A stretch of 64,000 nucleotides of DNA from Buxus sempervirens. Lineage: Eukaryota > Streptophyta > Magnoliopsida > Buxales > Buxaceae. This document shows, one piece after another, positions 13,744 to 53,300 of this stretch. Within the stretch, counting starts at the first letter, position 1, and each line of letters begins with the position of its first letter. The stretch is from positions 45,775,220 through 45,839,219 of the forward strand of contig OX387186.1 in assembly GCA_947561395.2 (NCBI GenBank), given 5' to 3'. A program made the translations under genes and the position numbers. A model generated the notes under the pieces. The model had not been told where the DNA came from. It was given only the letters and a program-made list of their open reading frames with translations, and did not search any database.

Positions 13744-16700
13744 CTAGGTTACTTGCGAGCAACCATCACCATTAAAAGTCAAGTTCTTTATTTGTGATTG
13801 TTGTTGTTGCAACAATTTTAGTTCCTTCACTCTCTCTTCTGTCAGCTTCAGTGCTTCACCCAAAATCCTCACCATCTGAGAAACATAACTTAGTCAAGCT
13901 TTAGCAAATAAAAAAAGTGAAAAGGCCATCCTCAAGCAAGCCTTGGATCTTATTTTGGTTAGTACCTAGTGGGTATTAAAATAAATGCATTTCATTTCTT
14001 TTCTCATCATCCAACAATAAAAAACAACTGAGGATGAAATTTATCTTACCTCATCAATTTCTTCCGGAGTGATTATTAAGGGAGGGGCCAAAACAATTTT
14101 ATCTTTAATAGCACGTACAATCAACCCGCGCATCATGCACTGTTCTTGAAAAAAATTGCCTATAGCTGCAATTCCATCACCAATGAGTACTATTAACATA
14201 AATAATATAGTCTTAATAACCAAAATGTATGAAAGGTTCATAAGAAATATATATTTTGGGATGGAAATTAAGCTAAGGTGCCCAAAAGTCTGGTTTTGAG
14301 GGGAAAAATTCCCTACAATTACATTACAGTTATAATGAATGTGGGTTATATTTGTTTTTTGCATAATCCTTATTTATATTGGTGTAATTGTAAAGCCTAA
14401 GTGCAGGATGTTCACAGAAATTCTCCCTTTTTCCTCCTTTAACTTCTAGACCATCTAGTAAATATTTTTTGTGTTATTATTAATTAAATGCTTCTGACCT
14501 ACAAGAATCAAACTTCTTCAGTAAGAGTCATTAAGAGTATAAAAGTGCAGATGGAACTCACCCCATTCTGGAGGGAATATATCATTTGGTGACTTATTAT
14601 CGGTTAATTCAAATGCAGCAAATAAACCCATTCCTCTTATCTGCATAACAAAAACACTTTTATGGTCTAAATTCTTTGTGATGATGTACAGTACAACTTG
14701 TGTGCAAATATAGTTTTGAACATCAAAAGCTTGAAGTACCTCCCCAATAATGGGACTGTTGGAGAAAGTTTTAAGGCCATCCAAAAGCCTTGGAGAAATT
14801 TTTTGGACTTGTTGATCAATTTTTCTTTCCCTGAGAGCCAAGAAGTATAGTTTAATTCCTCAATAGCAACTACTGACCACTCATTTAATGTTTAAGAGAA
14901 AAACAGCTTAGTAGAATACTTGTAAATCTTCACTGCTTCTAGTGCAACTGCACAAGCTACCGGATGAGCAGAAAAGGTAAATCCATGGGAAAACACACCT
15001 GATAATACAAGATTAGTAGAAATACTCAAAAATAATAAATTTTAAGTAAAGAAACAAATAATGTTTAAGGATCTTGAGTTAATTGAGAAGTACTTTATAC
15101 ATACCAAGTTTAGCAGCATAAGAGAATATCACATCTGCAATTTCAGGGCTTATCAGAACTGCAGCAATTGGCATGTATGCAGAAGCAAGACCCTACAAAC
15201 AGAAAAAATATATTTTTTCTTTTTAATAGTCTTTCTTGTAAATCCTCTTTTATGTCACTTGTTTATTTGTACCTTTGCCAGGGTAACAAGGTCTGGTTTG
15301 ATATTAAATTTGTCACACCCAAACATTGTTCCAAGCCTTCCAAAGCCACAAACTACCTGAAACAAGGCAAGATCAATGCTAAGGCAAGGAAATATAGTTA
15401 AAATTGGATACATTAAATTGAAATAAATAGACATATAAAATATGAATACCTCATCTGCTATCAATAAAATATCATATTTCTTCAAAACAGCTTGAACCTG
15501 CACCATATACAATATCAAAACAAGAGATTTAAACATGCCAAGTTTACATATTTTGTAGTCTCATCAGCAAGGAACTTAATTTTCTGGTGAAAAACTCAGC
15601 CTTCTTTTGATGACAATATCTAACCTTTTCAAAATAATTTTTTGGTGGGATGATTGCACCTCCAACACCTGTAACAGGTTCAACAATAAACGCAGCAACC
15701 TAACATGAAGATTCCTATTAGTTCAAAAACCCAAAACCCTCTTTAAGTTATATATGGGTTAAACTCATTGATAGAAGTTAATCATAAGAGGATCAGATAC
15801 TGTCTCCGGTCCCTCTTTGAGAATAAGATTCTCCAACTCCTCAACTAATCTATTTGTGAACTGCTCCTCTGTTTCACCTGATATGCACAGATATTGATAT
15901 GTTTGTAACTATGTATCTTATACTCAAACAAGCAGGCTCAAGTATTTACATGGATAAGATAAACACCTGGTAGATGGAAACGCCAGTAATGGACGTCCGC
16001 AGTTTCCAACACAAATGGAGCTGGTAGATCAAAACCTTCATGTAGGAGGGGAAAGCTGAAAGAGAATTGCCTTAGTAGTAAACCAATAATTCTATTAAGT
16101 GGTATCCAGTAGCCATTGGGAGGATAATGAAATATATCACTGTTAATATCATTCTAAACTGCCCATTTCATCATTCCTTGGATAGAACAAGTTATTAAAA
16201 AGAATATGTGGTCATTCATGTTGGTGCTTATTTTCCTTACCGTGTAAGGCTAGCTGATATCATAGTTGATCCATGGTACCTATCAAATGAAAACATAGAT
16301 AAATTTTAATTGGATACATGTTAGCTGAGAGAATAAACATAGAAACATGATATATTTTAGCTAAAAACAACATACGAGCCACTGCGAGATATAATTTTCT
16401 TCTTTTTCGGCCTTCCGAGTGCATTGTTATAATACCAAACCAACTTAACCTGCAAAATAATGGACAAAGACCCAGAGAAAGGGATTTGTTAAATAATATT
16501 TCAGCTTAATTTCATAATACAATATTGGTTTTATATGCATGGTTCTACTAAAGAGAATATTGTATATTTTAATATGTTCTATTAATCCCTTTTGGATAAA
16601 GCTGATATTCACTTTAATGAAATGCTCAAGTACTCATTAAATTTACTAGGCAATCTAGCTATTCAAAGAATTTTTTTCCTTCTACTTAATTACTATTTTT

Positions 16701-24035: not shown

Positions 24036-25221
24036 GTCTGCCACAAGATCATGGGAGTTTCCTGAAAGACAGTTTGTTGACGTGATATTTAAATTAGTAT
24101 AGAATCCCTTGTTATTTGTGTCCAAAGTCTACTAATTAGTCATAGACTCACAAACAAGGCAATTTTTTGAAAGATGTTTTCTTCACATGATATTTTAATT
24201 CTCCGTTTGTTTTGCTGTAAAATCTAATGCGAAAAATGTTTTCAAGGTAAAATGGGGTTTTCATGTGTTTGTTACAATATGGTGGAAAACGGTTTTCCTA
24301 AAAGATAGTTGTGAAACCCCGTTCTAAAATCCCTAGTACACCCTAATCATTGAGCTTGATGTGTAGGTGAAGTTGAATCAACTCAAGCCTAAAGCCAGTC
24401 AAAGTGGCTAAGTCTCGGGCTGTCAGCAGCCTGTGAAGGTGAGCATCTTCCATGTGGTTAAATGAGGTTCCCTAATGTGAGATAAAATATGCTAAGTGTT
24501 GGACTTGTGCAATGTAGGGAGGAGAAATGACACACTTGTAATAATTTTTGTCTTGAGAAAGTCACTTAAGTGAGAAAACACCAAAGGGAAAAGCCATTCA
24601 CGATCAACCCTTTAGCTCAAACCCTTTTTTCCCATTTTCTTATCTTCCTCTTCTCCAACTCATCTTCTCCCCATTTCTTCATCATCCTTCCCTATTTTCG
24701 TCCCCATTCTTATTCCAACTCATTGGTGGGTTGTTGGCAAGCAAAATGAAAGAAAGAACCCAAGAGAAGCTATTCTTGTTTGGGGTTTTTGGTGGAGATT
24801 TTCGGAGGAAACAACCAAAGAGCAAGCAAGGAGCTGTTCGTGGCTTGCAATAGAGGTTATACAACTTGCTTAGTTGATTGCAAGAGATAAGCAACACCAC
24901 CCTAACCTTTATTTCACGATTTCGGCCATTTTCGTATGTTTAGATGAATGTTAGGGTTGAGATGTGAAAACGAGTTCTATGGCCAATAGGAGAGTTTTCT
25001 TTGAGGGGTTTTGTAGGTAGTAAGTTTCTACACATGCTAGGAGAGATTTCGAGCCCAAAAACACCTAGAACAAGTCAGATTTGAGAAAAATCAAAATCCC
25101 CAAAAGTTCGGATTTCGCGAGTTGCTGAGAAAACCCAGCCACTCGAGCGGGCATCAGGCGATAGTTTTAGATAGCTTCAGGTAAAGTTTTAAGGAATGGC
25201 CGCCCGAGCGACTGTTCTAGC

Positions 25222-26846
25222 TAGGGTTGCAACTTGGTTCGGTTCGGTCCGGGTTGAAGCTAATCCAAGACCGAACCGAAATTATGTACATCAACCCAAA
25301 ACCGAACCGAACTGAATTTTAAACCGAACCGAAAATGATTTAAAAAACCGAAATCCAAACCGAACCGAACCAAACTCCATAAGGTCGGTTCAATTTGGTT
25401 AGGTATGGGTTGAACCGATTCGTACTTCTCCATTTCTGTACTTCTCTTTACTCAACTTCTTAAACCTTCTCCATTTCGAAAACCCTAAACCACCATTAAA
25501 AAAGATTGTCAAAATTTACATATCACAAACGCCTTGTTCAAGAGAGTTGACCACAATCAGCAATCACAACGGGCTTGGAAGTCCTCGCTGATGAAGAACC
25601 CACCTTCTCAATTGCCTTCACCACATCCAATCCTTTGACGACCTGGCCAAACACAACGTGCTTCCCGTCAAGCCAATCGGTCTTTGCAGTACAGATGAAG
25701 AACTGCGGTCCGTTCATTCCCAAACCCGCGTTCGCCAAGGAAAGGACACCCAGACCAGTGTGCTTCTTGATGAAGTTCTCATCAGCGAACTTGGATCCGT
25801 AGATCGACTCTCCACCGGTGCCGTTCCCCGCCGTGAAATCGCCTCCCTGACACATGAACCCAAGAATGACACGGTGGAAGCTTGAGCCCTTGTAGTGTAG
25901 GGGCTTGCCACTTTGACCGACTCCCTTCTCTTCGGTGCAGAGAGCTCGAAAGTTCTCAGCCGTGCGAGGAGTAACGCCGTTGAAGAGCTCCATCACTATC
26001 TTGCCGGCAGGAGCTCCGCCGACTGTCATATCGAAGAATACCCTAGGATTTGCCATCGCCGATCTGTTTTCCTCAATCTCTAGTGCAGAGAGCAGCAGAG
26101 ATTGAATGTAATAAAGCTTCAAAAACAACGTGAAGTAGAAATGAGAGAGGAAGACGAAGTAAGGAGAAGAGAAAGAAATGAAAGGGGAAGAAGAAACGAC
26201 AACTTATTGCGGATCATCGTGCTCTAGAGAAGATGATAGTGGGGCTCATCGAAAAGATGACACTGAGTTCAGCTTGCATTGGAAAAAATAGCGGAAAATA
26301 ACTTCCACCAAGTTTTGGCGGAAGCTATTTTGCTCCAATTTTTTTTCCTATGAAACAAACGAGAGAGGGAGAGAGCGAGACGAGAGTGAAGGAAGGAGGG
26401 AGAGACGAGAAGGAAGGAAGGAGGGAGAGAGGCGAGAGAGAGAGGGAAAGGAGATGTTACCTAAAGAAGACGAACAAAATGGGAATCGATGGTTGGCACT
26501 CAGCAGCAATGGGGGTAATGGGTTCTAGGGTTTGAAGATTGAATAAATGGTGAAGGAGATAGAATTAAGGGAGGGGTGGTTTGTAATTTTATTAAATTTG
26601 AAAGGTAAACTATAAACTGTAATATTATATATAATTCGGTTCAGTTCGGTTCGGTCTAAACAAATATCTTAATTCGGTTCGGTTCGGTTTAACCAATCAC
26701 CTAACCCAAAACCAAACCGATTTAATTCGGGTTAGGTTTCTTTGGACCAAAACCGAACCGAAGTTTTAAAAACCCGAACCGAACCGAACCGAAGTCGGTT
26801 TGGTTCGGGTTGGTTTCGGGTTTACCTAGCCCGAGTTGCAGCCCTA
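25222..26846. mobile_element. hAT-like element carrying a cyclophilin gene (Pack-type)
   Basis: The left end TAGGGTTGCAACTTGG and the right end CCCGAGTTGCAGCCCTA are inverted repeats. The flanks GTTCTAGC (25,214-25,221) and GTTCTAGT (26,847-26,854) are an 8-bp target duplication with one mismatch, as expected for hAT elements. Subterminal zones are packed with GGTTCGG/CCGAACC words on both sides (25,240-25,430 and 26,630-26,820). The interior holds a complete cyclophilin ORF and about 0.5 kb of its upstream sequence, and no transposase. It sits inside LTR1, so it moved after the LTR. Confidence 0.8.
25538..26056 (-). CDS. Cyclophilin-type peptidyl-prolyl isomerase, intronless, inside a hAT-like element
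   Basis: 172 aa starting [14 protein letters not shown] and ending VIADCGQLS, the normal length and ends of plant cytosolic cyclophilins. The frame stays open upstream, but the MANPRV start matches the family. It carries the plant-type extra loop ([14 protein letters not shown]) and the catalytic signatures SSFHRV (Arg), [14 protein letters not shown] and [10 protein letters not shown], so isomerase activity on Xaa-Pro bonds is plausible. Several normally invariant positions are changed: HRVILGF for [21 protein letters not shown] for the usual LSMANAGPGTNGSQ. That suggests relaxed or altered selection after capture. Many plant cyclophilin genes of this class are naturally intronless, so lack of introns alone does not prove a retrocopy. 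The upstream 26,060-26,560 is GA-rich and may be captured promoter or leader. Confidence 0.9.
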
Positions 26847-27584
26847 GTTCTAGTGCCCGGTTTTAACAGAAGAACCCGAGAGCTATTTCTTGGCCGCTTG
26901 AGACTGGCTCGAGCGACCCATTGAGCGAGCTTACCATAATTTCCATAATTTACACTTTTAGCCCAAATTAAACTACCATTTGATTTTATTCAAATCCAAC
27001 CTATGTACAAGTGAGAGTTAGGTGTCCAGGGGGTGTTCCAACTAGAAGTAACTAAAAATTCCAAATAACAAAGAATTTGGATACGTTTTTCAGGAGAAGG
27101 TCTTAGAAAGGTTTTCTGTCCTAGATTACTACAGGAATGGAATAACGTGATTCCACCACTCCAAACACCTTCTAAATAACCCTAAAAAGTATAAATCAAG
27201 AACCAAGACTGAAAAATACAAGTATCAAGAGAGTTGAGGCATAGGTTGCCCCAAGAGCCTTGAGATGTAGAAATTGTAAAGAACTTAACCTGTACCATTG
27301 ACCACAAACAAGAGTACACCACCTATGATCAAATGGGCTTCGGTCCAGTAATTGGCACATGATATGAGGGCATAGGCTCGTATGACATTTGTACCACCTC
27401 AAGGGCATTGGCCCATTATCTGAAACATAAGACAGGAAGGGCAGTGGCTTAGGAACATTGAGGATTATTGAGCAGAGGGCTTCGGCCCTACATACATGAC
27501 ATAAATTGCGTAGGAGGCAGTAGCCTAGAAATACACAATATATTTAGGGCATTGGCCCGTAGGTTTAGCATTCAAAATATGGGT

Positions 27585-28055
27585 AGTTCACCTCAATTTG
27601 AGGGTAGTGAACTGGTTCCATTACAAAGTGAATATTGGCAGATCGTGTATGCAGTTCACCTCAATTGAGGGTAGTGAATTAGTGTTCATTTCAATTTGGG
27701 GGTAGTGAACTAGCTTCTTCACAAAGCTTGGTATTGGTTGGTAATTATATGTAGTTCACCTCATATTGGGGGTAGTGAACTAGAGTTCACCTCAATTTGG
27801 GGGTAGTGAACTAGTTCCTTTATAAAAGTGATTATTGGTAAGTAAAATGTATAGTTCACCTCAATTGGGGGTAATGAACTAGTGTTCATCTCAATTTGGG
27901 GATAGTGAACTAGCTCATTCACGAGAGTGAGTAATGATAAGTAACATGTGCAGTTCACCTCAATTTGGGGATAGTGAACTAGCGCCTTCTCAGAAGCGAT
28001 TATTGGTAAGCAAAATGCATGGTTCAGTTCACCTCAATTTGGGGGTAGTGAACTG
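27585..28055 (+). repeat. Array of hairpin-forming AGTTCACC...GTGAACT units in LTR1
   Basis: Nine units of about 29 bp (AGTTCACCTCAATTTGGGGG then TAGTGAACT) have inverted ends AGTTCAC/GTGAACT. They start near 27585, 27652, 27683, 27751, 27785, 27852, 27884, 27950 and 28025, in pairs or singly, separated by short or about 35-45-bp spacers with GATTATTGGTAAG words. A degenerate tenth lies near 28,091. Just upstream, GGGCTTCGGTCC and GGGCATTGGCCC words recur at 27,338-27,560. Confidence 0.9.
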
Positions 28056-28874
28056 GTTCCTTCTCAATAACGATTATTGGTCAGTAGTGTGTGGTACACC
28101 TCATTTGAAGTAGTGAATCTTTGTTCACCCTGGCCTGGAGATAGAGGACTCGTATCCTCCACGCGAACTTCGAATCCGATACATTTACTATATAATGTCC
28201 ATTGATTGCAATTGATATGACTTGATGAACTGCACACTGAAGCACATGCATGCACTTGTTAAATGACACCATGTTGCAGTTGCTTCCGAAATATTTCAAC
28301 TACCCGCATGTCATGGTTTCATCGAGATATATTTGCATGAACTGTGTTTTACCGAATCATGCATATGTTGCTTACTGAGACATTCGTCTCATAGTTGCTT
28401 TCTATCTTATTTTTTAGATCCATCGACGTCCGGTGTGAAGGACCGGACTGGGGATAAAGGCAAGGAAAAGGCCATCGGGTACAGAGAAGAAGACTTCTAT
28501 AGGCCTTAGGCTTTTATTTGTAATGCATGTATAGTTTTGAATTGTAAACCCTTACATTGAGAGGAGTGATTAGTCACCCAATGTTTTGTAAACTAAACTC
28601 TCATGTTTTATTTCATATCAAAATATATATATGAACACTTTTGGATATGCACATGTATAAACTGTTGCACTAGCACTCGTTATGAAAAAAGGTTTTAAAA
28701 TCATTCGTGTTTTGTTGAGTAGAAAGGCCCACTTGCCACGGTCTGGAGCGGGTCGTGCTTTGGAGGGGCAGGCTTCGTTCTGGGGCGTGACAATAGCTAT
28801 TTTCCGAAAAATAACATACCTTTGGAAATCACGTATAACATTTTCAGAAAAATGGATCACGCTCAATATATAGC

Positions 28875-29333
28875 TAGGGTCAATTCGGTTTGGGTTGAGC
28901 TCAACCAACACTAAACTAAAAATATTTGCATTCAACCCAAATCGAACCAAACTGAATTGAAAACCGGACCAAAAACAAATAAAAACTGAAACCCAAATTG
29001 AACGGAGCCTAATTACATGAAATCAATTTAGTTCAGTTTGCTTCGGGTTAGACCAATACATACATGTTGTCAAACAAGGGTATTGTTCGTAATATCCTCA
29101 AAGTTTAAAGGTAAACGTTCAAATTTTAGATCGGTTCGATTCGGTTTGGTTTAGACAAATAATGAATTCGGTTCGGTTTCGATTCGATTTAATTGAGCAT
29201 CCAACCAAAAAACAAACATAGTTCGGTTTAGGGTTATTGAACCAAAACTAAACCGAACAACTAAAAACCAAACTGAACCGGTCGGTTTGGGTCGATTTGG
29301 GTTTGGTTTTAACTGGACTGAGTTGCACCCCTA
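28875..29333. mobile_element. hAT-like MITE, about 460 bp
   Basis: The left end TAGGGTCAATTCGG and the right end GAGTTGCACCCCTA are inverted. The flanks ATATATAG (28,866-28,873) and ATATCTAG (29,334-29,341) are near-identical 8-mers, so the ends may shift by a base. Like the 25.2-kb element, the interior is full of GGTTCGGTTT and AACCGAAC words on both sides. There is no ORF of note. Confidence 0.65.
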
Positions 29334-37720: not shown

Positions 37721-40587
37721 CCTTAATTCAACTTTTAAGCTGAAACAAGGGAGGTGCCATGCAAGACACAACTTTCTATTTTAATACTTTTGAAAGTTTA
37801 AAAAACTTGAATTTCTTTCTTTTTGGAGAAAATAATGGGAAAGGCCTCCTTTTAGGGAGACTTTCTCTTGAGGCTTATAATTCAAACTTAGAAGTCTATA
37901 GCCCTCTTTTTTGTGAAAATTTATGAAAAAGGCCTCACATGAATAGCATGTGAGCACAAATTTCTAGATCATGCAAGCACAATCATATGGAATACATGTA
38001 CAATCATGCAAGGATACAACTATAATCATACAAGTATACAAGCATAATCATAGTAGGATACATGTATACAAGCATAATCATAGTAGGATACATGTATAAT
38101 TATATGGGGATATAAGCAATATCATAATAGGATACAAGCAAGTGGGGGATAAATTTGGATATTGTTGCTCATATGCTATTCTTGTGAGGGTTTTCCATAA
38201 TTTTTCCTTAAACGAAGTGAAGGGCTCCCTCCATTTCCAGAGAACCCTGTCTCTGTTTCGGGAACTCTGTTTTTGTAAATGTGCTAACTTGATCAGGTGA
38301 ACCGAAAGTCCTGTCGGAGCAATCCCGCCGAAGGAGCATCAATTCCGGCAAAATCTTTACGATTGAACAGTGTTACGAAGGTTAGAGGCAGAGATAGGAG
38401 GGGGAAGCTCTTTTAGCCAGGCGAAGCTGACGGCCTGAAAGGGGGGAGACCGTGCACACCGAAGCGGGTTCTCCGGCAAGCACAGTCATAGCTAGCGATG
38501 GATAACTGAGAAAACCAAGAGAGGAAGCAGCAGAGAGGACGGCGAGCTCGGTACAATTTGGTCCTTTATAATGTTGGGTTTTTACAGTTAAGTCTCTTTG
38601 GAGCTCATCTGGTTAAATTCAACCTTTTTTCTTCTTATAAATCTTGGGTTTAATCATCTTGTCGAAATAATCGAAATCATGGATCAGATTTGCTGATTGT
38701 TTACTACATCTGAAAACTAAACGCTGTTCTAATATTCCATGCTGGGTTTTATAAACATAAAAATGTTGTCTTTAGCATAAATGTTGGCATGTTAAATTGA
38801 ACACTCTCAGTCATATCATTAGGCTTATGTCCTAATCCACTGCCTATGTTTCTGATGTGTTATAATGAGCGGGCTTCTAATTTTCATTTTACCATTTTAA
38901 TTTTGATTAGTTTTTAGAGTAAATTGTAGATTTTACCTTTTGGATATGTGGTGGAAGGAAACTACCTTAGTTCGTCAAGACTTTTATGTTTTACCTTTCT
39001 TTTAGAGTTTGGTGTGGCAAACCTAAGTGTTAGGAATATAATTAAATATATAAAGTTCACCCTTATTATCAGCTTAAGCTTTTGGTAGGATTGGTGTTCT
39101 ATATGGTATCAGAGCTTGGTGTTCTATATGGTATCGAAGCCTTAGACTAATGCCGAGGTCCTGGGTTCAAACCTCCACTATACCTGTTGAAAAATATTCC
39201 ACATGTGGGGCCTCCTTAAAATGGGTTTGAGTCCGGCCTACATGTGAGGGTAAGTGTCAGGAATATAATTAAATATATAAAGTTTACCCCTATTATCAAC
39301 TTAAGCTTTTGGTAGGATTGGTATATAAAGTTCATCTCTATTATCAACTTAAGCTTTTGGTAGGACTGGTGTTCTATACTAAGTGACCATATTAAGCTAA
39401 GGTTAGAATTCCAAGTGGCCTTATTGACCAAATTACGTTTTATATAAATTCTGAAAGGTGGTTCATTCACCACATTAGTTGCTTTTAGGAATTCTATAAA
39501 GTGGTTCATTAATTGATAACCTAATTCATTTCACCTTGAGAAAACCCGACTCAGCCCAATGCCCTTCAACAGAGAGCACCATAAAAATCTAGCCGTCTCA
39601 CAATGAATCATACTATGATCCACCGGTCTCCAGTCTCTAAGACACAATACACACACATGGCAAGAGATAGTTTACTACTTCCTCCTCTTTTAGAAATTTT
39701 CTCGAGTGTTAGTGTTGTGGAATGCGGTTCAAAGGAAGGCCTTTACTTTTTTGTGAGGGCAGGGGAAATGTAGGGTTTACATGAAAATTCAAAGGAGGTG
39801 GAGGTAAATGAACCATGCTGTGAAACATTTTGCTGGAATTTATGCTAGAGCAAAGTACAAAATGGACAAAGGGGCTTTATAAAAACATAATAATCAATCC
39901 AACTTATAGAACCAACTTTAACCACGACTAGAGTGATTGAAGATGAGAAGGTCAAACAATGAGATGTAGCCATTGCTGAAAGTTGTAGTCTCGGAGTTAC
40001 ATGGTTGGTGAGCAGCAAGAAAAGTCCAGTGGTCAGGTAATTGATAAAGTTCAGATGTGGCCAGTGTTGAGGATACCAAGCTGTGAACCAGGTGGCCAAT
40101 GATCATCAGTACGTTTTCTCACTGGGGTCGCAAAGTACTCAAGATGGTTCGGTGTTAAAGAGGGTCAGAAGGAGTAACATTTTATTGAGTTTAGACAGTT
40201 TTTGTTTTAAGTTTGTGAGGTTGAAGAAGTGTCTTTCATCCTAGAGTCATCTTCCATTTTATAGATGAAAATCAGTTAGTTATTCCAATGACCCTCTCCT
40301 CTCTTTTGTCTAAATGTGTTGTCTTTTATTTTTAACTACCATCACTTTTCATGATGAAAAAACACGTTCAGTCTATGTGGCATCATCAGATTGCCTTTTT
40401 TTATTCCATAGACATGGCCCATTTTTCTTCCACATGTCTTTGCCTTGGTAGACGTTCCTGTTCTTCATTTTCGTTCTAAGGAAAGTTTGATTATCTGAAC
40501 CAAATTGTCAGGTGATGAAGCAATTTGCATATATCATTTACATGTGATCTAATCCCTTTTCAAGGATTTGATGCACAAATCTTTGTG
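37721..40587. other. Intergenic DNA left of the tandem duplication
   Basis: It contains short AATCATA(A/G)TAGGATAC tandem words at about 37,980-38,140, a GC-rich patch at 38,210-38,560 with no recognised protein on either strand, and a retroelement-like repeat at 39,020-39,385. The minus-strand frames near 39,216-40,106 have no family features. Confidence 0.5.
39020..39385 (+). repeat. Direct repeats with a TGGTATCAGAGC primer-site-like word
   Basis: AATATAATTAAATATATAAAG followed by TTATCA(G/A)CTTAAGCTTTTGG occurs at about 39,030 and 39,251, and the second half again near 39,330. Between them, TTCTATATGGTATCAGAGC is the usual plant primer-binding-site word for initiator-Met tRNA, and GTCCTGGGTTCAAACC resembles a polymerase III B box. 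This is probably a scrambled remnant of a retroelement. Confidence 0.45.
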
Positions 40588-40829
40588 TAAACGATTGACA
40601 AAACAATGAATTTCCTTGTTGGGTTACAAACTGATGCAATGCTTCCAAGCACAAACAGAAGGCAGCTTTGTTTCTTGAAGTCGGAATATCTATAAACTCC
40701 TTATTAGTAGGATTTAAGAGCAAAAGACAGTACTTAATAATATTTCTCAAAGCCAAACATTTGCTTGTAATCAACAATTTCTTTTACTCTGTCAACTCCC
40801 AACAGCATCGAAAATCAACTTCTGAGAAC

Positions 40830-43800
40830 TTACTGCTTTTTGTGCTGCAACTTGAGTTGCTTCATTCTTTCTTCTGTGGGCTTTAGTGCTTCTCCAAAGA
40901 TCCTTAGTAACTGAAAAATCATGATTGTAGAATTAGTTAACACCCAGTGTCAAAAGGTAGAGACAGCTTTGTTTGTCTCTCTTAAGGATAAGCTTATGAT
41001 ATTTTCCTCTTACCTCATCAATTTCTCCAGGAGTGATTGTTACTGCAGGGCAAAGGAGAATCATATGGCCAATAGTACGTGGAAACAATCCACGCTTCTT
41101 GCACTCCTTATCAAAAACTTCGGCTACCTCTGTGGAGCAATTGTTGAAACATATTATAAGAAGAAACACTAGTAACATCAACTCAGATATACATTTCATG
41201 TCATTAAACACATTGAAACTCCCGGCCACAAGTAGTGATCTTCTCTTTTGAGTAATGAAAAGCCAAATGAATACGAAACTTACCCCATTCAACAGGGAAA
41301 AGATCATTTGGTGACTTGTTATCCACGAATTCGACTGCAGCAAATAGACCAATTCCCCTTATCTGCATAATAAAATTGGATTTGAAATTCAAAATTTTTT
41401 TTTGAATTTTTGAAATCAAGTAACAATTGAAAGGTTAAGATTTGAAAGTACCTCGCCAATAATGGGGCTATCAAGGTGTTTTCTTAGCCCATTTAAAAAC
41501 CTTGGGGATATTTTGTCGACTGCCTCACCAATATTTCTTTCCCTAGAAACCAAAGAAACGGTTTTGTTTACCACCAATTTTATATTAAATTCTCAATGAA
41601 ATATGCTAGAGAGTAGCGTACTTGTAAATTTTCACTGCTTCTAAGGCAACTGCACAGGATACTGGGTGTCCAGAATTAGTAAATCCATGAGCAAATCCAC
41701 CTAATTGTCACAAGGTTAGTATTACTCCACGAAAAAGGAATTGTAAATCATCTTACATTGCTAATTCTGCAAGTATTTTAGATGTACCAAGTTTGTTGGC
41801 ATGAGACTCTATGACGTCAGTGATTTCGGGGTTTATAAGAACTGCTCCAATAGGTATGTATCCAGAAGAAAAACCCTGAAAATCCCAATTTGTAAATACA
41901 AACGTCAATCCACTTACCTTTTTTTTGTGAAGGGTCCATACTTCAATTTTGTTAAGACTGTACCTTTGCCAAAGCAACCATGTCTGGTTTCATTTTCATT
42001 TTATCACAACCAAACATTGCTCCAATCCTTCCAAAGCCACAAACAACCTGAAACAAATAATTATGGGAAAAAACAGGGACATTAATCCTATGCTAAAGAA
42101 AAATGTTTAATCATGACTTTTGGATACATTGAAACAACTTATTATATATACACTGAAGTACCTCATCCACAATCAATAGAATGTCGTATTTTTTCAACAC
42201 AGCTTGAATCTGAAAATATGCACAAATATATTAAGAATTCATAATTCATGTCCTTCTAATATGAACTGATGCATGTGGGCATGCAACTAAGCTTAAATTT
42301 TTTACGGAAGGTATAGAACAAATTGTATGATATTGAATTCTAACCTTTTCATAATATGTATTGGGAGGAATAATCACTCCTCCAGCAGCATGGACAGGCT
42401 CACAGATAAATGCAGAAATCTAACAGAAATACCCATATCAGATCAATGATAAAAGTACCCTTTTATTTGTAAAGCAATCTTGGATGGAAGCTAGTGTTTA
42501 ATTATTAACATAAGGAACTACCGTGTCTGGTCCCTCTCTAAGAATAAGATCCTCCAATTCCTTGGCTAATCTAGTTGCAAATTGCTCCTCTGTCTCACCT
42601 GTCACAGATATGCACATATTGATTTATCTATTGTCAAGAAAATCATTGAATAAAACGATAAACATGAAACAATGGCTAATATAGAAACCTGGTAGGTGGT
42701 TGCGCCAATAATGAGGACATTCGGTCTCTAATACAAATGGTCCTGGTAGATCAAAGCCTTCATGTAGTGGATAAAGGCTAGAAAAAAATTACAATGTTAA
42801 TAGATGAATAAAATTCATGAACAATTCTATCAAGTATGGTAGAGCATGAAGATTACTAGCAAAGGATACTCCCGATGATTATAGTTTAGACTCCTAGGCC
42901 AATTACATGTCATTCCACAACTTATGCTAATAAGAAGTATTACAATAACTTATATTTTTGTTGCTGCCTCCTTTATGGCATACCGTGTAAGACTCGCTGC
43001 TGCTATAGTTGATCCATGGTACCTGTCAGAAGGCAAAATTAAATAAAAGTTTAATTAGATAAACTCATCTAGAGAAGATGTAGAAACAAAAAAAAATTGT
43101 ATTCTTTGCTTGAAAACATACGAGTATTTCCGAGATATAATTCTCTTCTTATTTGGCCTTCCAAGTGCATTATTATAATACCAGGCTATCTTCACCTGCC
43201 AATAAATAAATATAAACCCACAAAAACGGAAGACGTTAATTAATTATTGAAGGTAATTTTCCTTTAGTACTGATTTTCATAAGCATGTTTTCTTTAACAT
43301 AAATAAGGTCTTTCTATTTTAATTATTTCTACCTATCTTATCTATGCTGATGTCAAGGTCTACTTAATTGTAACCTTGAATTTACAATGCAATGTACTTC
43401 TTGGAAAAGCTTAACTACATGTTAAATATCACAAGATTCTTGATTTCACTTTTCACATTTTTGTTGATCTTTCTAGTCATCCTTTCTCAAACACTTTCTT
43501 GAACTCCTCTTTATCAAAATCAAAATTTACAACATGATTGTCATCTCACTTAGATATCCAACTGACCATTGAAATATTTAACTGAGAAATGAGGTCTATT
43601 ATTTCTTGAAAAACAGAGCTTGAAGTCTTATAAACCCCATGCTTCATTGTGTTCTTATTAATTCTCCCTCCGTTAGCTTTCTAACCTTTGAACTCAATCT
43701 TGTGGCTATCATGAGTTATGATGTTATGTGCATCAATTATGTTCCTAAAAATGCTACTCTTTATAAACTTCTAAGACATGATGAACAAACCATGGTTTCA

Positions 43801-46800
43801 TTAGACTCTGAACCACCGTTTGTAAAGAAGACTTTTTTCATTTTCGTTGCTGTAAATGTTTCCAGAAGCTCCTTTGCAAGATCCTGCAAGGACAAAATAA
43901 TCACTCACTTATGAATGTTAAAAAAAAAACCTTCTTACAAGTTTGTAATTAACCACATGCAGAAGCAATCAACAAAAGATTGCTTAAACTAGTGCTCACT
44001 TCAAAGATGACGCTCAAAATTTAAATTTGTGCAACTAAAAGTGTCAAATGTTCAATTCAATGAGAGTTGTATACAAATTGCAAAATAATCTTGCATGATA
44101 TTAGTAGAATATTGTTGAAAATGCTAACATAATTCGATCATATAATTTAAGATGAACATATTGGAAGAAACAGAGTCACAAGTAATGAATATACCACAGG
44201 AGGTGGACTAATGCAATTCCAGAAAGCATGGTAAAATGGCAGGGTTTTTAATTGGTTGACTGCGGCTGCAACAAGTCGAGGTTCACTTCCACCTGCAAAA
44301 TTCAAAAGTTACATCAATGACTTAAATTAAAAATATCTATGACATAACTCACGCATTATATGTAACTTGACTAATAACAGGGATATTTTGATATTATTTG
44401 CTTAAGAATAATATCCAATTTCTTAGCTCTCTGTCATCCATTATGAGAGTTTATTGCTTGGGAATTTTCAAGAGAAAAATCTACATCTTTTCAGTTATAC
44501 AAATTTTTGTTGATGCTATTTTAGGATACTTTGAAAAGTGTGGTATGACTAGTCAAGTTTTATCTCCCAAAATATTGGAAAAAAGTATCGGTGCCAACAA
44601 AATGTGACTACTTTAGAATCAATCTGCTAAATATGTTTGGAATGATTCTTGTGACACAAAAGAGAAAAAAGGTAATAAAGATATCAGCAAAGCATCTCTC
44701 TAAAGATGTGGAAACTGATTTCTCACTTTTTTAGACAAAAACTTTTCTTGAGAGGCTACATTAGGTAATGAGTCTTTAGCCTTACAGGATTCTGTCATTT
44801 TTCTCTCCTCTCCCAACTTCTTTCTTGTAGCTCTCTTCCTCTTTCTCTTGATATATTGTAGAATAGAATATATGGATGAGTCAAAGATCCTTACAAACTA
44901 TTGTAGAAACAAAAACTCGTGAAGTGTAAGTGAGTTCACATAAATATTTGCTCAATTTTATACACCAATTAACTAGATGATCACTTGTTCTGTTCTTAGA
45001 TATTTTTGGTATTAGTTTCATTACTAAAAAAATAAATGATTTATTCAAAATTATTTTGAAGCCTCTTTCATCATATAAGCTGATATGAAGTTTGGCAATT
45101 TTATAGTGACCTTAAAGCAACAGAACCAAACAAAGGAAAACTATCAACAGTAAGAGGGGCTTGAGATAGTGGTAACTATTGCTGACCTAAGCTTGTGCAG
45201 AATACACCAGAAACACCATCAAGATACTTATTGCCCTCTCCATCAAAGACATAACAACCCTAAAATTTGTGTATCAAGAAATTTTCAAGATAGGATTAGT
45301 TTCCAAAAAAAATAAAAAAAGGAAATTAATTCAAAAAATCATTACAAATGTAAGCTCACAATGGCCTAGAATTTTCTTTCCTTCATGATATGGTTATGTC
45401 AATTTAAATGTCAAAAATGTTATACCTCAGTCCTGTCAATGAAAAGTGGGTCCTGTTCAGCAGTTTCTTTTGGATCTGTGAATGGCGCCAACAGCCCATG
45501 CCCCTTCAACCTAAGGAGAGCAAGCATCTCATTTCATGAGGAACATACTAAATTGAAGTGTTGTTTTTATTTATCATACTTGTTGAACTTAAAAGCTACA
45601 ATATTCAGCAGTAAAGAATAACGGTATAATAGATTTAAGGAAGACCCGTTAAGCTAGAATTTTTGTTCTAGTGTTCTCAAAAGAATTCAGTTTTGTTATC
45701 CAAAATAATTTCCCTTATTTTTTTTTTCCCATGTACTTTTCTTTCTTGCAGAAAATATATTTGTATTTTTGTTGTAAACTTGAAATGCCTGGACCAAAGT
45801 GAAACTGAATTTCACGCATCATTCTCTCTTTACTCTTTAAGCTGATATGGACCTCTTCCACATGACGTGGTGATAACCTTTTTATGGTTTAAATTACTCC
45901 TATATGTTCAAAAAGAAAATCGGCTTTTCATTTGTTGACATTCAGCTAATTAATTTTTTTCTGGGAGGGTTTTCACTAAACTTTTTTCTTATGGCACTTT
46001 ATACTTACATCTCTGAGTGCTCATTTTCTTAAGAGTTATGATAAATTTCATATGGAACACTTTCATCCATTTTTGTGTTCCTAGTGTAGAATCTGAGTTT
46101 TCTATGCTTCTGTCTTCTAGAAATTTCTTTATGTTTTCTGAGTTCTAACATTTTAATATCAATTATAATGACGGAATCTTTTTTTTTGGTTTAATCATTG
46201 AATTATCATTTTTAATTAGATTGCCAACTCTCTTAAACTTAATGATTCAATTTGAACTGAATTGATTCATGATTTTTTGTGGGATTCAATTTTCAAACTA
46301 AAGCAAAAGAGACTGAAGTACTAGTGAAAAGTGATGACAAAAAAATGGAGACCAGAATTTCATCTACACAAATGCAACACAATAATTGTGAAGAGATGAA
46401 ATACTGCATCATAAATGAGTAGAAGACATGTATTACTAAGAGAATGTCTGTACCCTTTTCCACGATTAATCTTGGGGGTAGTATCTTTCTGTTGTACTGT
46501 TGCTGTGGACATGCTCTGTGTAAGCATGGGAGCGCAAAGCAACTCCTCCTTGCAACTTCCATTTTTTGCAACTTGTTTCAAGTATGAACATGCCTGGAAA
46601 AGAACTAAACAAGTAAATATAGGTGTACTAATCAAAATTTCAAGCCAAGTATGAACAACCCCATGGAAACCAATAAATGGTTACTAAGAAAAACAATCCA
46701 ATGGGTAACATGGTAGCTTTGTTATTATATTATCAAATTCAAAGCCAACTTCTTGGAAAAATTTCACATTGGAATTCTTAAAATCATTTTTTCTAATGAA

Positions 46801-48032
46801 GAACTAAAAAAACAAATTAATTTGTGCAAGATTTGGCATTCATTCATTAATGAGAACCAGGGACAAGAGTAAGTTAATGGACCTTGAAACTTATTCTTAA
46901 TTGAGAAGGGGAGGAATCGAATTTTGGGAACTGATGTGAGAAAATCTCTCTCTCACAAATCAAGCTAGGTGGTTTTCCTATATTTTGAGAACTCATTCAT
47001 CAACAAGTATGATTTTAAACTAGTGAAATTTGGAATCTTTAAATGCATCCTTGTTTCTTGTATTGACAAATAGAGATGTCAATTTTCCGGGTCTGCTCAA
47101 AGCCCACTCAGCCCAGCCCAAATAAAAGCCTGAACTTTGGAGCCCATTAGTTTCAGGCTAGGTTGAAGAGAATTTTAAAGTAGAAAACTGCCAACAACTT
47201 TATACAATTATAGAAACAGAAACAAGAAACATTTGGAAGAACCTCAATTATGAGGGAGAATCTGAAAATAGATATAGGAGTGGTTAGCAGAGAAAATTTT
47301 CATTTTTAAGAAATTTAGTAAATTCAATTCCTATTGAAAGACTTCACTATTAGGAGCTAATAGAACAATACTTACAAAGTAAGAGTAAAAAAATATAGGC
47401 TCTACAAGAGTTATTAATACTGTAATAGAATGATATATTTGGGATTATTAAATGGTTTTTAATAGAGCGGGATTGAGAGAAAAGATTCGTGTCACTGATC
47501 ACACTTCGGTGGGAATTGGCTTATGATGATGATGAAATGATCTCTCAGTCCTCCCACACCTCTCTCTCTCCCTCTCTCTCACACACATACACATATCTCG
47601 GAGCCTGGAGCTAAAGAAAACTTGCTAGTGTGGTTTTCCATCCAAACCTTGGTTGCCCAAGGGTTCTTGATCTAAGCCTGTCAAAATGTCCCCTATCAGG
47701 TGGATGATCTACCAAGACAAACATCACCTGGGTCTTTTCTGTTTTTTTTTTCTTTAAAATACCTGCTTCAACCTCATGAGATTGCTTACTCTTACATTGA
47801 CAATGCATTATAAACCCCAAACACCCCACTAAAAAGAGTAGGAACTAATGAAGGCAACAAGATTCACATAAAGCAATCAACAAAAAAAAGTTATAAGTAA
47901 AAGAGACAAAACCCAGACAATCAAACAGAAGGATTGCGGAGAAATGCAACAAAATGAGATGAGAAAAGTCTGGGCCTTAGAGCTTGAAACCTGATTTTTG
48001 AGACTGGAACGTGAAAAAAGCTTCCCCAACAT
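40830..48032 (-). CDS. GABA-T: GABA-transaminase-like aminotransferase with presequence (gene 2, copy A)
   Basis: Nineteen exons in transcript order: 48032-47991, 46593-46454, 45510-45426, 45259-45187, 44292-44195, 43883-43791, 43195-43122, 43022-42984, 42777-42689, 42598-42522, 42419-42345, 42209-42162, 42047-41964, 41875-41788, 41700-41622, 41542-41452, 41362-41284, 41129-41014, 40910-40830. Phases all join: 1,551 nt, 516 aa, no internal stop. The start [14 protein letters not shown] is rich in Arg, Lys and Ser, as in mitochondrial presequences; chloroplast targeting is not excluded. Core residues: GGSESN for the PLP phosphate loop, YHGS, Glu277 in CEPV, Asp310 in IVDE and Lys339 in LAK. 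Departures from canonical plant GABA-T include [15 protein letters not shown] and a C-terminal [13 protein letters not shown] in place of the usual PPL form. A changed substrate range is possible but not shown. Exon sizes match gene 1 through the core. Confidence 0.92.
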
Positions 48033-48115
48033 CTTGTTTTGTGCTCTAAGCTGTTTTTAGAGTTCTGGTAGTTGCACTAGTCTTGCAGCACTGAGTGCTA
48101 TTATTTCTATCTATG

Positions 48116-48123
48116 CTTTTATA
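48116..48123 (-). promoter_or_regulatory. TATA box of GABA-T gene 2
   Basis: TATAAAAG reads on the minus strand 84 bases upstream of the ATG. The same word lies at the same spacing upstream of gene 3. Confidence 0.6.
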
Positions 48124-48721
48124 GAAGTTCATAGCAAATTATTAATACAGAGAAGTTCATTTTTTCTCATCTCCCACTGTACTTATACATTTTCAGATTA
48201 GCCTCTGTACTTAAAGGGCTTTTCAGTTGGAAGTGATATATATAGTTTCTTTTCAAATATCTCCCTTAATTTTTGAAATATTTAGGGTGAATCTGAAATG
48301 GAAAATATTTGAATTGATCAGCAGTTAAAAATTTTGGGTGTAAGTTATAGGCGCCTTTTTGGAATTTTATGTTTATTGTGGGAGTTCAGTGAAAAGTTGG
48401 AGACCACGAGACCTCCGTGGGCCGAGCGAGTCAATCCAACGTGCTTGCTGTCTAATCGATTAATATAAACAAACATAAAAGAGACAAAGAGAAGGATGCG
48501 AAGTGATTATGTAAGCTGGAGGCATAGGAAGAGCATTACCTGGTCAGTCAAAATCTTCTTTGGCAGAATGTAATTGGTCCAAATGGACAGGAACTTTGAA
48601 TTCTCGGACGAACAAACTGTTCTTGCGCGCACAGTCCACGATTTCGTATTAGGCGGGCGTACGTCACTATTACCAAGCTTTGAATTAGATTTTTAAAAGG
48701 CACTTTGACAGATTTTGGATT

Positions 48722-49149
48722 GGGTAAATTACACTTACCTCCCTTGAAGTATGCTATAATTACACTTACCTCCCTTGAGATTTCTGAAATAACACTTTCC
48801 CCCATTAAGATTTGTGTATGGGTCAAAATAACACTCTTTTATTGAAGTTTCCATTAAAACAGTCGTGATAGTAAAATAATTTAAACTAGACAAGATTACC
48901 TCTTCATAAAGATGAGAACAAAAATTTTAATGGCGTAAGGCATAACTATCATTTAACTTAAATGGGGGTAATCTTGTCCAATTCAAATTATTTTACTAAC
49001 TATCACTACTATTTTGACGGAAACTTCAATGAAAGAGTGTTATTTTGACTCATACACAAATCTCAAGGGGGGAAAGTGTTATTGCAGAAACCTCAAGAGA
49101 GGTAAGTGTAATTATAGCATACCTCAAGGGAGGTAAGTGTAATTTACCC
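48722..49149. mobile_element. Mutator-type MITE present only in copy A
   Basis: The ends GGGTAAATTACACTTACC and GGTAAGTGTAATTTACCC are exact inverted repeats, with a second nested pair, CTTACCTCCCTTGAG(A/G). TTTTGGATT flanks both sides (48,713-48,721 and 49,150-49,158), a perfect 9-bp duplication. Copy B has a single TTTTGGATT at 58,287-58,295 with matching flanks. 428 bp, non-coding. Confidence 0.93.
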
Positions 49150-50321
49150 TTTTGGATTCTATCCTGATATATAATCTAATTCTAGAATCTAGAAGTGGTG
49201 TTTGGATCACATTATAGAGTTGGATATTTATAATATAATTTTGAAATCTGACCTAAAATAAGAATCTGTCTCTAAGAACATAATAGCATTATGCTGATAT
49301 CATTTTTTGTGTGTAATTATTAACATAAAAATTAAAAAGTTGGTCACGGTAATCAAGGTTAATCAAATGAGATTCTACACTCTAATGGCATAATTAAATT
49401 CTAGAACCCAATGTATTCATATGGAATTTTGAATTTTAGAAACCAGATTTTGAAAATCCAAGATGATAATTTGAATCCAAAATCTAGAATGCCTATTAAA
49501 CGCTCTATAAGGCATAGGGGGAGTAGTTACAAACTGGTTCTGTTTTGAACAAAAATGTTGAGTTTAGACGGGTATAGTCCTGTATTATTGAAACCCTAAA
49601 CTACGCAGGGAATGGGCATTTTAGGAAAGAAGTGAATTGTTTTAGGCATGCTTCCCAAGGGGCCTTCTCGCATTAAGTATGGTATAAACTTCTCCAATCG
49701 AGCCCAAGCTTAGTTTAAACAGGGTCAAGCTCGTTGGGCATAGTGGGCCGGGCCTATAACTGACACCCCTTGGGATTGTATCTTTACGAAGAGAAAAGGC
49801 CATAATCAATTTGGAGGCAAAGCCAAAAGATTAGTTTAAGAGGGGCAAACAATAAATTCAACCACATTAACATGAATAATTACTTTTAGAAAAAAGAAAT
49901 TGGGAATATTATAGAAAAGGTGACCACTTTTGGCTGGTACATATAAAAATAGTCCATAAAAAAATTTTTTTCCAAAAAGGGGTCCATGTTCAAGAAAAAG
50001 AAAAAATGAACTATAAGATAACTGTACTGTAGTTACATGGGACACAAGCACAGCCTACTTGGGACACGAGTGCATTATGTGAATGATTAACAAAACAATG
50101 AATTTCCTTGTTGGGTTAAAAACTGATGCAATGCTTCCAAGCACAAACAGAAGGCAGCTTTGTTTCTTGAAGTCGGAATATCTATAAACTCCTTATTAGT
50201 AGGATTTAAGAGCAAAAGACAATACTTAATAATATTTCTCAAAGCCAAACATTTGCTTGTAATCAACAATTTCTTTTACTCTGTCAACACCCAACAGCAT
50301 CGAAAATCAACTTCTGAGAAG

Positions 50322-53300
50322 TTACTGCTTTTTGTGCTGCAACTTGAGTTGCTTCATTCTTTCTTCTGTGGGCTTTAGTGCTTCTCCGAAGATCCTTAGC
50401 AACTGAAAAATCATGATTGTAACATTAGTTAACACCCAGTGTCAAAAGGTAGAGACAGCTTTGTCTGTCTCTCTTAAGGATCAGCTTATGACATTTTCCT
50501 CTTACCTCATCAATTTCTCCAGGAGTGATTATTACTGCAGGGCAAAGGATAATCATATGGCCAATAGTACGTGGAAACAATCCACGCTTCTTGCACTCCG
50601 CATCAAAAAAGTCGGCTACCCCTGTGGATCCATTGTTGAAAAATATTATAAGAAGAAACACTAGTAACATCAAATCAGATATACATTTCATGTCATTAAA
50701 CACATTGAAACTCCCTGCCACAAGTAGTGATCTTCTCTTTTGAGTAATAAAAAGCCAAATGAATACGAAACTTACCCCATTCAACAGGGAAAAGATCATT
50801 TGGTGACTTGTTATCCACGAATTCGATACAAGCAAATAGACCAATTCCCCTTATCTGAATAATAAAATGGGATTTGAAATTCAAAAGTTTGTTTTTTTTT
50901 TTTTGAATTTTTGAAATCATGTAACAACTTGAAAGATTAAGATTTGAAAGTACCTCGCCAATAATGGGGCTATCAAGGTATTTTCTTAGCCCATTTAAGA
51001 ACCTTGGGGATATTTTCTCGACTGCCTCACCAATATTTCTTTCCCTAGAAACCAGAAAAAGGGTTTTGTTTACCCACCAATTTTATATTAAATTCTCAAT
51101 GAAATATGCTAGAGAGTAGCGTACTTGTAAATTTTCACTGCTTCTAGGGCAACTGCACAGGATACTGGGTGTCCAGAATTAGTAAATCCATGACCAAATC
51201 CACCTAATTGTCACAAGGTTAGTATTACTCCAAGAAAAAACAATTGTAAATCATCTTACATTACTAATTCTGCAAGTATTTTAGATGTACCAAGTTTGTT
51301 GGCGTGAGACTCTATGACGTCAGTGATTTCGGGGCTTATAAGAACTGCTCCAATAGGCATGTATCCAGAAGAAAAACCCTGAAAATCCCAATTTGTAAAT
51401 ACAAACGTCAATCCACTTACCTTTTTTTTTTTTAAGGGTCCATACTTCAATGTTGTTAAGACTGTACCTTTGCCAAAGCAACCATGTCTGGTTTCATTTT
51501 CATTTTATCACAACCAAACATTGCTCCAATCCTTCCAAAGCCACAAACAACCTGAAACAAATAATTATGGGAAAAAACAGGGACATTAATCCTATGCTAA
51601 AGAAAAATGTTTGATCATGACTTTTGGATACATTGAAACAAATTATTATATATACACTGAAGTACCTCATCCACAATCAATAGAATGTCGTATTTTTTCA
51701 ACACAGCTTGAATCTGAAAATATGCACAAATATATTAAGAATTCATAATTCATGTCCTTCTAATATGAACTGATGCATGTGGGCATGCAACTAAGCTTAA
51801 ATTTTTTACGGGAAGGTATAGAACAAATTGTATGATATTGAATTCTAACCTTTTCATAATATGTATTGGGAGGAATAATCACTCCTCCAGCAGCATGGAC
51901 AGGCTCACAGATAAATGCAGAAATCTAACAGAAATACCCATATCAGATCAATGATAAAAGTACCCTTTTATTTGTAAAGCAATCTTGGATGGAAGCTAGT
52001 GTTTAATTATTAACATAAGGAACTACCGTGTCTGGTCCCTCTCTAAGAATAAGATCCTCCAATTCCTTGGCTAATCTAGTTGCAAATTGCTCCTCTGTCT
52101 CACCTGTCACAGATATGCACATATGGATGAATCTTTTGTCAAGAAAATCATTGAACAAAACGATAAACATCAAACAATGGCTAATATAGAAACCTGGTAG
52201 ATGGTTGCGCCAATAATGAGGACATTCGGTCTCTAATACAAATGGTCCTGGTAGATCAAAGCCTTCATGTAGTGGATAAAGGCTAGAAAAAAATTACAAT
52301 GTTAATAAATGAATAAAATTCATGAACAATTCTATCAAGTATGGTAGAGCATGAAGATTACTAGCAAAGGATACTCCCGATGATTATAATTTAGACTCAT
52401 AGGCCAATTACATGTCATTCCACAACTTATGATAATAAGAAGTATTAAAATAACTTATATTTTTCTTGCTGCCTCCTTTATGGCATACCGTGTAAGACTC
52501 GCTGCTGCTATAGTTGATCCATGGTACCTGTCAGAAGGCAAAATTAAATAAAAGTTTAATTAGATAAACATTGTTCATCTAGAGAAGATGTAGAAAAAAA
52601 AATTTGTAGTGTTTGCTTGAAAACATACGAGTATTTCCGAGATATAATTCTCTTCTTATTTGGCCTTCCAAGTGCATTATTATAATACCAGGCTATCTTC
52701 ACCTGCCAATAAATAAATATAAACCCACAAAAACTGAAGACGTTAATTAATTATTGAAGGTAATTTTCCTTTAGTACTGATTTTCATAAGCATGTTTTCT
52801 TTAACATAAATAAGGTCTTTCTATTTTACTTATTTCTACCTATCTTATCTATGCTGATGTCAAGGTCTACTCAATTGTAACCTTGAATTTACAATGCAAT
52901 GTACTTCTTGGACAAGCTTAACTACATATTAAATATCACAAGATTCTTCATTTCACTTTTCACATGTTTGTTGATCTTTCTAGTCATCCTTTCTCAAACA
53001 CTTTCTTGAACTCCTCTTTATCAAAATCAAAATTTTCAACATGATTGTCATCTCACTTAGATATCCAACTGACCATTGAAATATTTAACTGAGAAACGAG
53101 GTCTATTATTTCTTGAAAAACAGAGCTTGAAGTCTTATAAACCCCATGCTTCATTGTGTTCTTATTAATTCTCCCTCCATTAGCTTTCTAACCTTTGAAC
53201 TCAATCTTGTGGCTATCATGAGTTATGATGTTATGTGCATCAATTATGCTCCTAAAAATGCTACTCTTTATAAAATTCTAAGGCATGATGAACAAACCAT

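What the first reader, a model, noticed from the sequence alone, without database searches (positions are those of the whole stretch)
25214..26854. hAT-like element carrying a full-length cyclophilin (Pack-hAT)
Inverted ends TAGGGTTGCAAC/GAGTTGCAGCCCTA and an 8-bp duplication enclose a complete 172-aa cyclophilin ORF and about 0.5 kb of its upstream DNA, with no transposase. Pack-MULEs are well known, but hAT elements carrying an intact host gene are reported far less often. The ORF has no stop yet carries unusual substitutions at normally fixed sites (VIPGF to VILGF, AGPGTNGS to AGLGMNGP).
Basis: partly seen in the sequence, partly recalled or inferred. Interest (0 to 1): 0.8.

Follow-up and report, generated by a model that had tools for sequence, protein, structure and literature searches.

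The report
Jumping gene carrying a copied cyclophilin
A hAT-type jumping element in a plant genome has copied a whole cyclophilin gene body behind its own promoter-like end and spread it to at least three places; the copy here can still be read but is decaying, and the element belongs to a large family in which many members carry different cargo, some of it pieces of other host genes.

Summary
A 1,625-bp hAT element (25222-26846; target duplication GTTCTAGC/GTTCTAGT) sits in a high-copy, probably LTR, repeat: 39 of 40 scored matches to the joined flanks are uninterrupted. It holds an open 172-aa cyclophilin ORF (25538-26056, minus strand). The parent is at C12:40635820 (94%). Two more cyclophilin-bearing copies exist, one frameshifted, one truncated and fused to another fragment. 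The odd substitutions are post-capture changes (9 nonsynonymous, 10 synonymous): neutrality is not rejected (P 0.08), host-level constraint is (P 0.017). The family has 206 promoter-side ends (reversed control 0). Of 20 sampled, 16 were paired; 14 of those hold at least 280 bp not seen in the other 22 sequences compared. Some cargo is clearly host-derived (SPT5, Ca-ATPase, EXORDIUM, RAMP4); most is unidentified. One Ca-ATPase insert exactly lacks a parental GT-AG intron. Pack-hATs are known, so this is a new member; the cargo-rich family is the interesting part.

The parts
25214..25221 (.). left target-site duplication GTTCTAGC
   Evidence: single copy at the junction in 4 of 4 empty sites read
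25222..25475 (-). distal (3') end of the hAT element: TIR TAGGGTTGCAAC plus subterminal GGTTCGG repeats and a short internal stretch shared with the C1 copy to 25469
25476..26080 (-). segment copied from the cyclophilin gene at C12:40635820 (94.4% over 605 nt): 24 bp 5'UTR, whole CDS, about 60 bp 3'UTR
25538..26056 (-). open cyclophilin ORF, 172 aa (PF00160)
26081..26085 (-). junction of the cyclophilin copy and the locus X piece, short CTYTG similarity
   Evidence: read by eye
26086..26353 (-). captured piece of a second locus ('locus X', C12:36857235-36857471, 81%); also in the C1 element, where it continues over 605 bp of the same locus
26200..26351 (-). 152 bp missing from the C6 and C3 copies, present in the window and C1 copies
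26356..26846 (-). proximal (promoter-side) end of the hAT: TIR, subterminal repeats, TATA-like site, putative leader with splice-donor-like TAG|GTAACATC, pyrimidine tract; 90.7% identical to the transposase-bearing relative at C12:10067658
   Evidence: promoter and leader are inferred
26847..26854 (.). right target-site duplication GTTCTAGT (one C>T change)
24311..28792 (.). probable solo LTR (TG...CA, flanks ATAGT/ATAGC) that received the element; about 2.85 kb without it
   Evidence: boundaries read by eye
28875..29333 (-). related short non-autonomous hAT (MITE) with the same kind of ends

Best explanation
A non-autonomous hAT element (Pack-hAT) built by successive captures. Shown: (1) its promoter-side 491 bp and its distal end are those of a 6-kb transposase-bearing relative. 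(2) Between them lies a piece of locus X and then a copy of the cyclophilin gene body, read in the same direction as the element's putative leader. (3) A sister element has locus X but no cyclophilin, so X most likely came first. (4) The X+cyclophilin element is at three loci at least; in one it lost half the gene and gained another fragment, in another it frameshifted. (5) The window copy jumped into a repetitive LTR-like sequence and made an 8-bp duplication. Inferred: captures arose by template switching during repair or replication of the element's interior, helped by short pyrimidine-rich similarities; transposase came in trans from relatives; the cyclophilin ORF has drifted under little or no constraint since capture and stays open by chance.
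For: TIR/TSD and empty sites. Parent gene with junctions in 5'UTR and 3'UTR. Nested structure from C1, C6, C3 copies. Relative with zf-BED 8.8e-9 and hAT RNase-H 7.5e-21, TIRs and 7/8 TSD. Single capture: the three copies share R19K, R48Q and the T>C at CDS position 93 against the parent. Drift: window branch N 9, S 10, neutral simulation mean N 12.25, P(N<=9) 0.08; under the N share of one host paralogue pair P(N>=9) 0.017; substitutions break the ORF in 46% of simulated neutral histories, indels not modelled.
Against: P 0.08 does not rule out weak constraint on the window copy, and its N share (9 of 19) is lower than that of C6 (12 of 15). The constraint yardstick is a single paralogue pair. 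No expression data. The template-switch mechanism rests on structure and a few bases of similarity at the junctions only.
Confidence: 0.9

Rival explanations
1. Two separate hAT MITEs flank a native or retroposed cyclophilin gene.
For: The window does hold a separate related MITE about 2 kb away at 28875-29333.
Against: The same ends with the same insides occur at C6 and C3 with their own target duplications; the flanks join cleanly in empty copies.
Confidence: 0.02
2. The captured cyclophilin is still a working, selected gene (extra or neofunctional isomerase expressed from the hAT promoter end).
For: ORF open; putative leader and ORF in one direction; window branch N share below the neutral mean (P 0.08).
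Against: Changes at residues invariant in 139 of 139 listed homologues (G42E, T114M, S117P) and in 137 or 138 of 139 (D27G, P65L, M107L, G157A); sister copies frameshifted or truncated; host-level constraint rejected, P 0.017.
Confidence: 0.07
3. The cyclophilin came in through RNA (spliced transcript or processed pseudogene), not genomic DNA.
For: Captured piece starts inside the 5'UTR and ends in the 3'UTR, no parental promoter; in the same family the Ca-ATPase cargo of L042 lacks a parental 98-bp GT-AG intron exactly.
Against: The parental CDS has no intron, so nothing distinguishes RNA from DNA here; no poly(A) at the junction; the locus X piece in the C1 element runs along 605 bp of genomic DNA.
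Confidence: 0.2

Closest known systems
Pack-TYPE transposons incl. Pack-hAT (Gisby & Catoni 2022, PMC8903248; passages read)
   Same: hAT TIRs, 8-bp TSD, non-autonomous, host gene sequence inside, stepwise acquisitions
   Different: Those passages treat maize and rice; here a whole CDS is held, the sampled inserts sit between two shared end blocks, and the species is an unnamed plant, probably a dicot
Ds2/Ds-l4 gene captures in maize (Du et al. 2011, PMC3260210; passages read, incl. part of the abstract)
   Same: hAT elements with gene fragments from other chromosomes; filler DNA of other origin also frequent
   Different: There gene capture was called rare in hAT: 2 Ds2 and 9 Ds-l4 among 903 elements. 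Here 14 of 16 complete sampled elements carry 280 bp or more not seen in the other sequences compared, though only part of it is shown to be genic
Fungal hAT carrying histone H3 (Dhillon et al. 2019, PMC6710886; abstract read)
   Same: Host housekeeping gene captured and amplified by a hAT, copies decay
   Different: Hundreds of copies inactivated by RIP in fungi; here three cyclophilin copies found and ordinary decay
Animal Pack-TIRs incl. Pack-hAT-N8_XT (PMC8277862; passages read)
   Same: Multi-copy capture elements explained there by template switching followed by transposition
   Different: Animal; mostly short pieces (median 224 bp in the passage)

Membership tests
hAT superfamily | 8-bp target-site duplication | tested here: met
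   Window 7 of 8 with empty sites; of 20 sampled relatives 10 exact, 4 with 7 of 8, 1 with 6 of 8, 1 with 7 matches only at a one-base shift, 4 with no partner end found; runner-up candidate ends scored at most 5 of 8
hAT superfamily | short TIR of the YAGGG type with subterminal repeats | tested here: met
   the motif itself is recalled
hAT superfamily | hAT transposase (BED finger, RNase-H fold, dimerisation domain) in full-length relatives | tested here: inconclusive
   Relative L035 1059-7097 has zf-BED and hAT RNase-H in broken frames; a dimerisation domain was not matched in the four ORFs scanned
Pack-TYPE / Pack-hAT | no transposase in the element | tested here: met
   (no match to the relative's interior between 1500 and 5000)
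Pack-TYPE / Pack-hAT | host gene sequence inside with a parent elsewhere | tested here: met
Pack-TYPE / Pack-hAT | moves as a unit (several copies with own TSDs) | tested here: met
   C3 (7 of 8); C6 with 7-bp ATATCTA on both sides, read by eye
functional cyclophilin | residues under constraint | tested here: not met
   Host-level constraint rejected, invariant residues changed
functional cyclophilin | isomerase activity | not testable with these tools
   Catalytic residues look kept by eye against a recalled list; activity needs an assay

The most novel reading that the evidence does not exclude
The family is a natural gene trap: a hAT whose promoter, non-coding first exon and splice donor form a fixed module, with cargo swapped in at hot spots just behind it (in the first exon or early in the first intron of the transposase gene), so that captured gene starts can be expressed, and whose cargo enters in part through spliced RNA rather than DNA. 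The cyclophilin element would be one product of that cassette exchange.
Probability: 0.2. Interest if true: 0.75.

Novelty: new member of a known kind. Interest (0 to 1): 0.5.

Why it matters
A 2011 maize survey called gene capture by hAT elements rare (PMC3260210). Here is a clean case with parent, a precursor-like sister, empty sites and sister copies, inside a family where different inserts seem to be the rule. It gives a system for asking how cut-and-paste elements acquire sequence (DNA gap repair or spliced RNA) and whether a fixed promoter/donor module lets them express what they catch. The cyclophilin copy itself is most likely a decaying passenger.

Tried and rejected
Native gene between two MITEs: rejected. 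Internal-deletion derivatives of the transposase-bearing element: not supported for the sampled elements, since none of the 22 compared matched it between positions 1500 and 5000. Functional constraint as explanation of the open ORF: not supported (one search was a first version with a worse ancestor, window N 12, S 9, P 0.16, and is superseded). Species identification: tried with the parental protein; among the 120 rows listed the best full-length matches are 92% to several dicots, so not identified. 'PPR-like' for the second fragment in the C3 copy is my reading by eye; Pfam gave no match. 'SPT5' rests on the DNA match of the cargo to the gene at L062 and on Spt5_N in that gene; Pfam gave no match for the cargo itself. 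Sense-orientation bias of cargo: 6 of 7 identified pieces sense (cyclophilin, Ca-ATPase, EXORDIUM, RAMP4, LysM, SPT5), bHLH antisense; too few to claim. Of 98 cargo ORFs from 13 inserts four gave convincing Pfam matches, in 3 of the 13 inserts, so most cargo is of unproven origin; two weaker matches (GPR15L 0.0053, DUF900 0.0089) were dismissed. 'Unique' inserts were judged by same-strand blastn among 23 sequences only; two of them, L058 and L042, do have further copies in the genome. Distal breakpoints printed mix hits from both ends of an element and are not used. Parents of the L056 and L044 cargo could not be searched (tool busy). A paper search for DNA-transposon capture of spliced cDNA gave three listings, none read; one search gave none; some searches gave listings of which only the papers cited were opened. 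I make no claim that RNA-derived capture is unpublished.

Full report
WHAT IS THERE. The window lies in a 676.5-Mb genome, contig C8. At 25222-26846 is a 1,625-bp element with ends TAGGGTTGCAAC and GTTGCAGCCCTA, GGTTCGG-type subterminal repeats (21 matches with up to 2 mismatches in the window, 0.21 expected) and flanking 8-mers GTTCTAGC/GTTCTAGT. The exact 12-base TIR occurs 270 times in the genome, the reversed control 18 times. The element contains the ORF 25538-26056 on the minus strand, 172 aa, cyclophilin (PF00160 2.8e-44), one unrelated 61-aa frame, and no transposase.

INSERTION SITE. I joined the flanks with one copy of the 8-mer and searched the genome. Of 1,422 candidates 40 were scored; 39 run across the junction at 83-86%, the other is the window's own left flank. 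In the four I read around the junction, GTTCTAGC stands once with continuous flanks. So the duplication is real and the right copy bears a C>T change. The host sequence looks like a solo LTR, 24311-28792 (TG...CA, ATAGT/ATAGC on the sides); that label is inference from ends and copy number.

PARENT AND CAPTURED PIECE. The ORF has six matches in the genome (6 of 6 candidates scored): the window, C12:40635820 (94%), C6:45603556 (93%), C4:2812002 (78%), C3:41387949 (first 247 nt, 94%) and C22:23603735 (69%). C12 is an open gene with a TATA-like stretch upstream, by eye, and without hAT ends in the 1.5 kb fetched on each side. It matches the element from 26080 to 25476: 24 bp of 5'UTR, the CDS and about 60 bp of 3'UTR. 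No parental promoter and no poly(A) was taken.

WHAT LIES UPSTREAM. 26356-26846 is the element's own promoter-side end, shared by many relatives and 90.7% identical to the start of a 6,039-bp element, L035 1059-7097 (C12:10067658). That element has TIRs, AGTACTAT/AGTACTAC duplications, a BED finger (8.8e-9) and a hAT RNase-H domain (7.5e-21) in broken frames. 26086-26353 matches a second locus, C12:36857235-36857471 (81%); a sister element on C1 (L010/L041, TSD TTGGGCAC on both sides) matches 605 bp of that locus at 86.5% and has no cyclophilin. So the order most likely is hAT, then locus X, then cyclophilin. Whether locus X is a gene was not shown; the captured part has a GTAAGC donor-like site. 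The junction X/cyclophilin shows a short CTYTG similarity.

SISTER COPIES. The C6 copy holds the whole CDS but lacks one base at CDS position 297. The C3 copy holds the first 247 nt followed by another coding-like stretch (PPR-like by eye). Both lack the 152 bp 26200-26351 that the window and C1 copies have. The three copies share R19K, R48Q and one silent change against the parent, so one capture most likely gave all three.

FATE OF THE ORF. On the branch to the window copy there are 9 nonsynonymous and 10 synonymous changes. Neutral simulation with the same mutation classes gives a mean of 12.25 nonsynonymous, P(N<=9) 0.08 (0.10 among histories that stay open); with the nonsynonymous share seen between the parent and its C4 paralogue (24.2 of 105) P(N>=9) is 0.017; substitutions break the ORF in 46% of simulated histories, indels not modelled. 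The C6 copy has 12 and 3. In the 139 listed homologues the parental residue is invariant at 42, 114 and 117 and kept in 137 or 138 at 27, 65, 107 and 157. An open ORF is not evidence of function here, and weak constraint is not excluded.

THE FAMILY. A 29-base promoter-side pattern with up to one mismatch has 206 sites and none for the reversed control; 72 exact ones are listed. 16 of 20 have a partner end, 1.3 to 2.6 kb away: 10 with 8 of 8 TSD, 4 with 7 of 8, one with 6 of 8, one only at a one-base shift; 4 had none within the 6 kb fetched; runner-up candidates reached at most 5 of 8. In a same-strand comparison of 23 sequences (these 16, the window, C6, the transposase-bearing element and four), 14 of the 16 hold at least 280 bp found in no other of the set; in L053 part of this is a repeat inserted near its end; L050 and L054 share theirs; L042 and L057 share part. 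The L042 and L058 inserts do recur elsewhere in the genome. None of the 22 matches the transposase-bearing element between 1500 and 5000. Left similarity to it ends at 463-495 in 16 of 22 (near the end of a pyrimidine tract; two of these 16, L040 and L049, have a further short match to 556-563), at 318-327 in 5 and at 205 in 1; alignment ends are approximate and several of the 22 share one capture, so these are not 22 independent events. The distal block shared by at least five sequences is 155-234 bp long. In the transposase-bearing element a donor-like CAG|GTAACATC follows position 380 and ATAG|ATG stands at the BED ORF (1725), so the first exon looks non-coding and the slot lies in exon 1 or early intron 1; splicing is inferred.

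CARGO. Pfam on 98 cargo ORFs from 13 inserts gave EXORDIUM (Phi_1 2.6e-54) and RAMP4 (1.5e-5) in L056, Ca-ATPase N-terminus (2.5e-5) in L042, bHLH-MYC_N (2e-8, antisense) in L044; LysM (4.8e-6) in L025. The L058 insert has 43 bp upstream of the ATG and the start of the coding region of an SPT5 gene, C12:26841004 (94% over 270 nt), plus a piece like C12:35383162 (88%). The other inserts had no convincing match. The L042 insert is found at five more places, one of them partial; its likely parent, C1:4285742-4286157 (96% over 253 nt), has a 98-bp GT-AG intron that is exactly absent from the insert, and similarity upstream begins within five bases of an acceptor-like AG. So that cargo most likely passed through spliced RNA, directly or by way of a processed pseudogene. 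The insert upstream of about position 1190 matched other copies and, weakly (72%), two further places, so the source of its first part is unknown.

LITERATURE. Pack-hATs in maize and rice (PMC8903248, passages); 2 Ds2 and 9 Ds-l4 of 903 maize elements with gene fragments, called rare (PMC3260210, passages); fungal hAT with histone H3 (PMC6710886, abstract); animal Pack-TIRs incl. a frog Pack-hAT (PMC8277862, passages); a 2026 review (PMC13317346, passages). The kind is known. What may be new is the density of different cargo behind one promoter-side module and the spliced cargo; my paper searches were few and limited to the open library.

Noticed in passing
40583-50078 and 50075-59194: About 9.5-kb tandem duplication, 91-96% identical in three blocks, with a 65% relative at 14555-16484: perhaps tandem retroelements or a gene duplication.
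   Followed up: no
48722-48872 and 48999-49149: 151-bp inverted repeat, 92% complementary, 126 bp apart.
   Followed up: no
28875-29333: Short related hAT MITE just outside the probable LTR; one extra C between the left duplication (ATATATAG; right ATATCTAG) and its TAGGG end.
   Followed up: partly
27585-28068: Nine imperfect copies of a 43-nt AGTTCACCTCAATTTG... repeat inside the probable LTR.
   Followed up: no
L042 (element positions 1190-1720) against L067 393-1001: Ca-ATPase cargo of a related hAT lacks a 98-bp GT-AG intron of its likely parent exactly.
   Followed up: partly
L053 (element positions 38-429): The C3 cyclophilin element has about 390 bp of GC-rich repeat-like DNA inserted 37 bp from its promoter-side end.
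   Followed up: no
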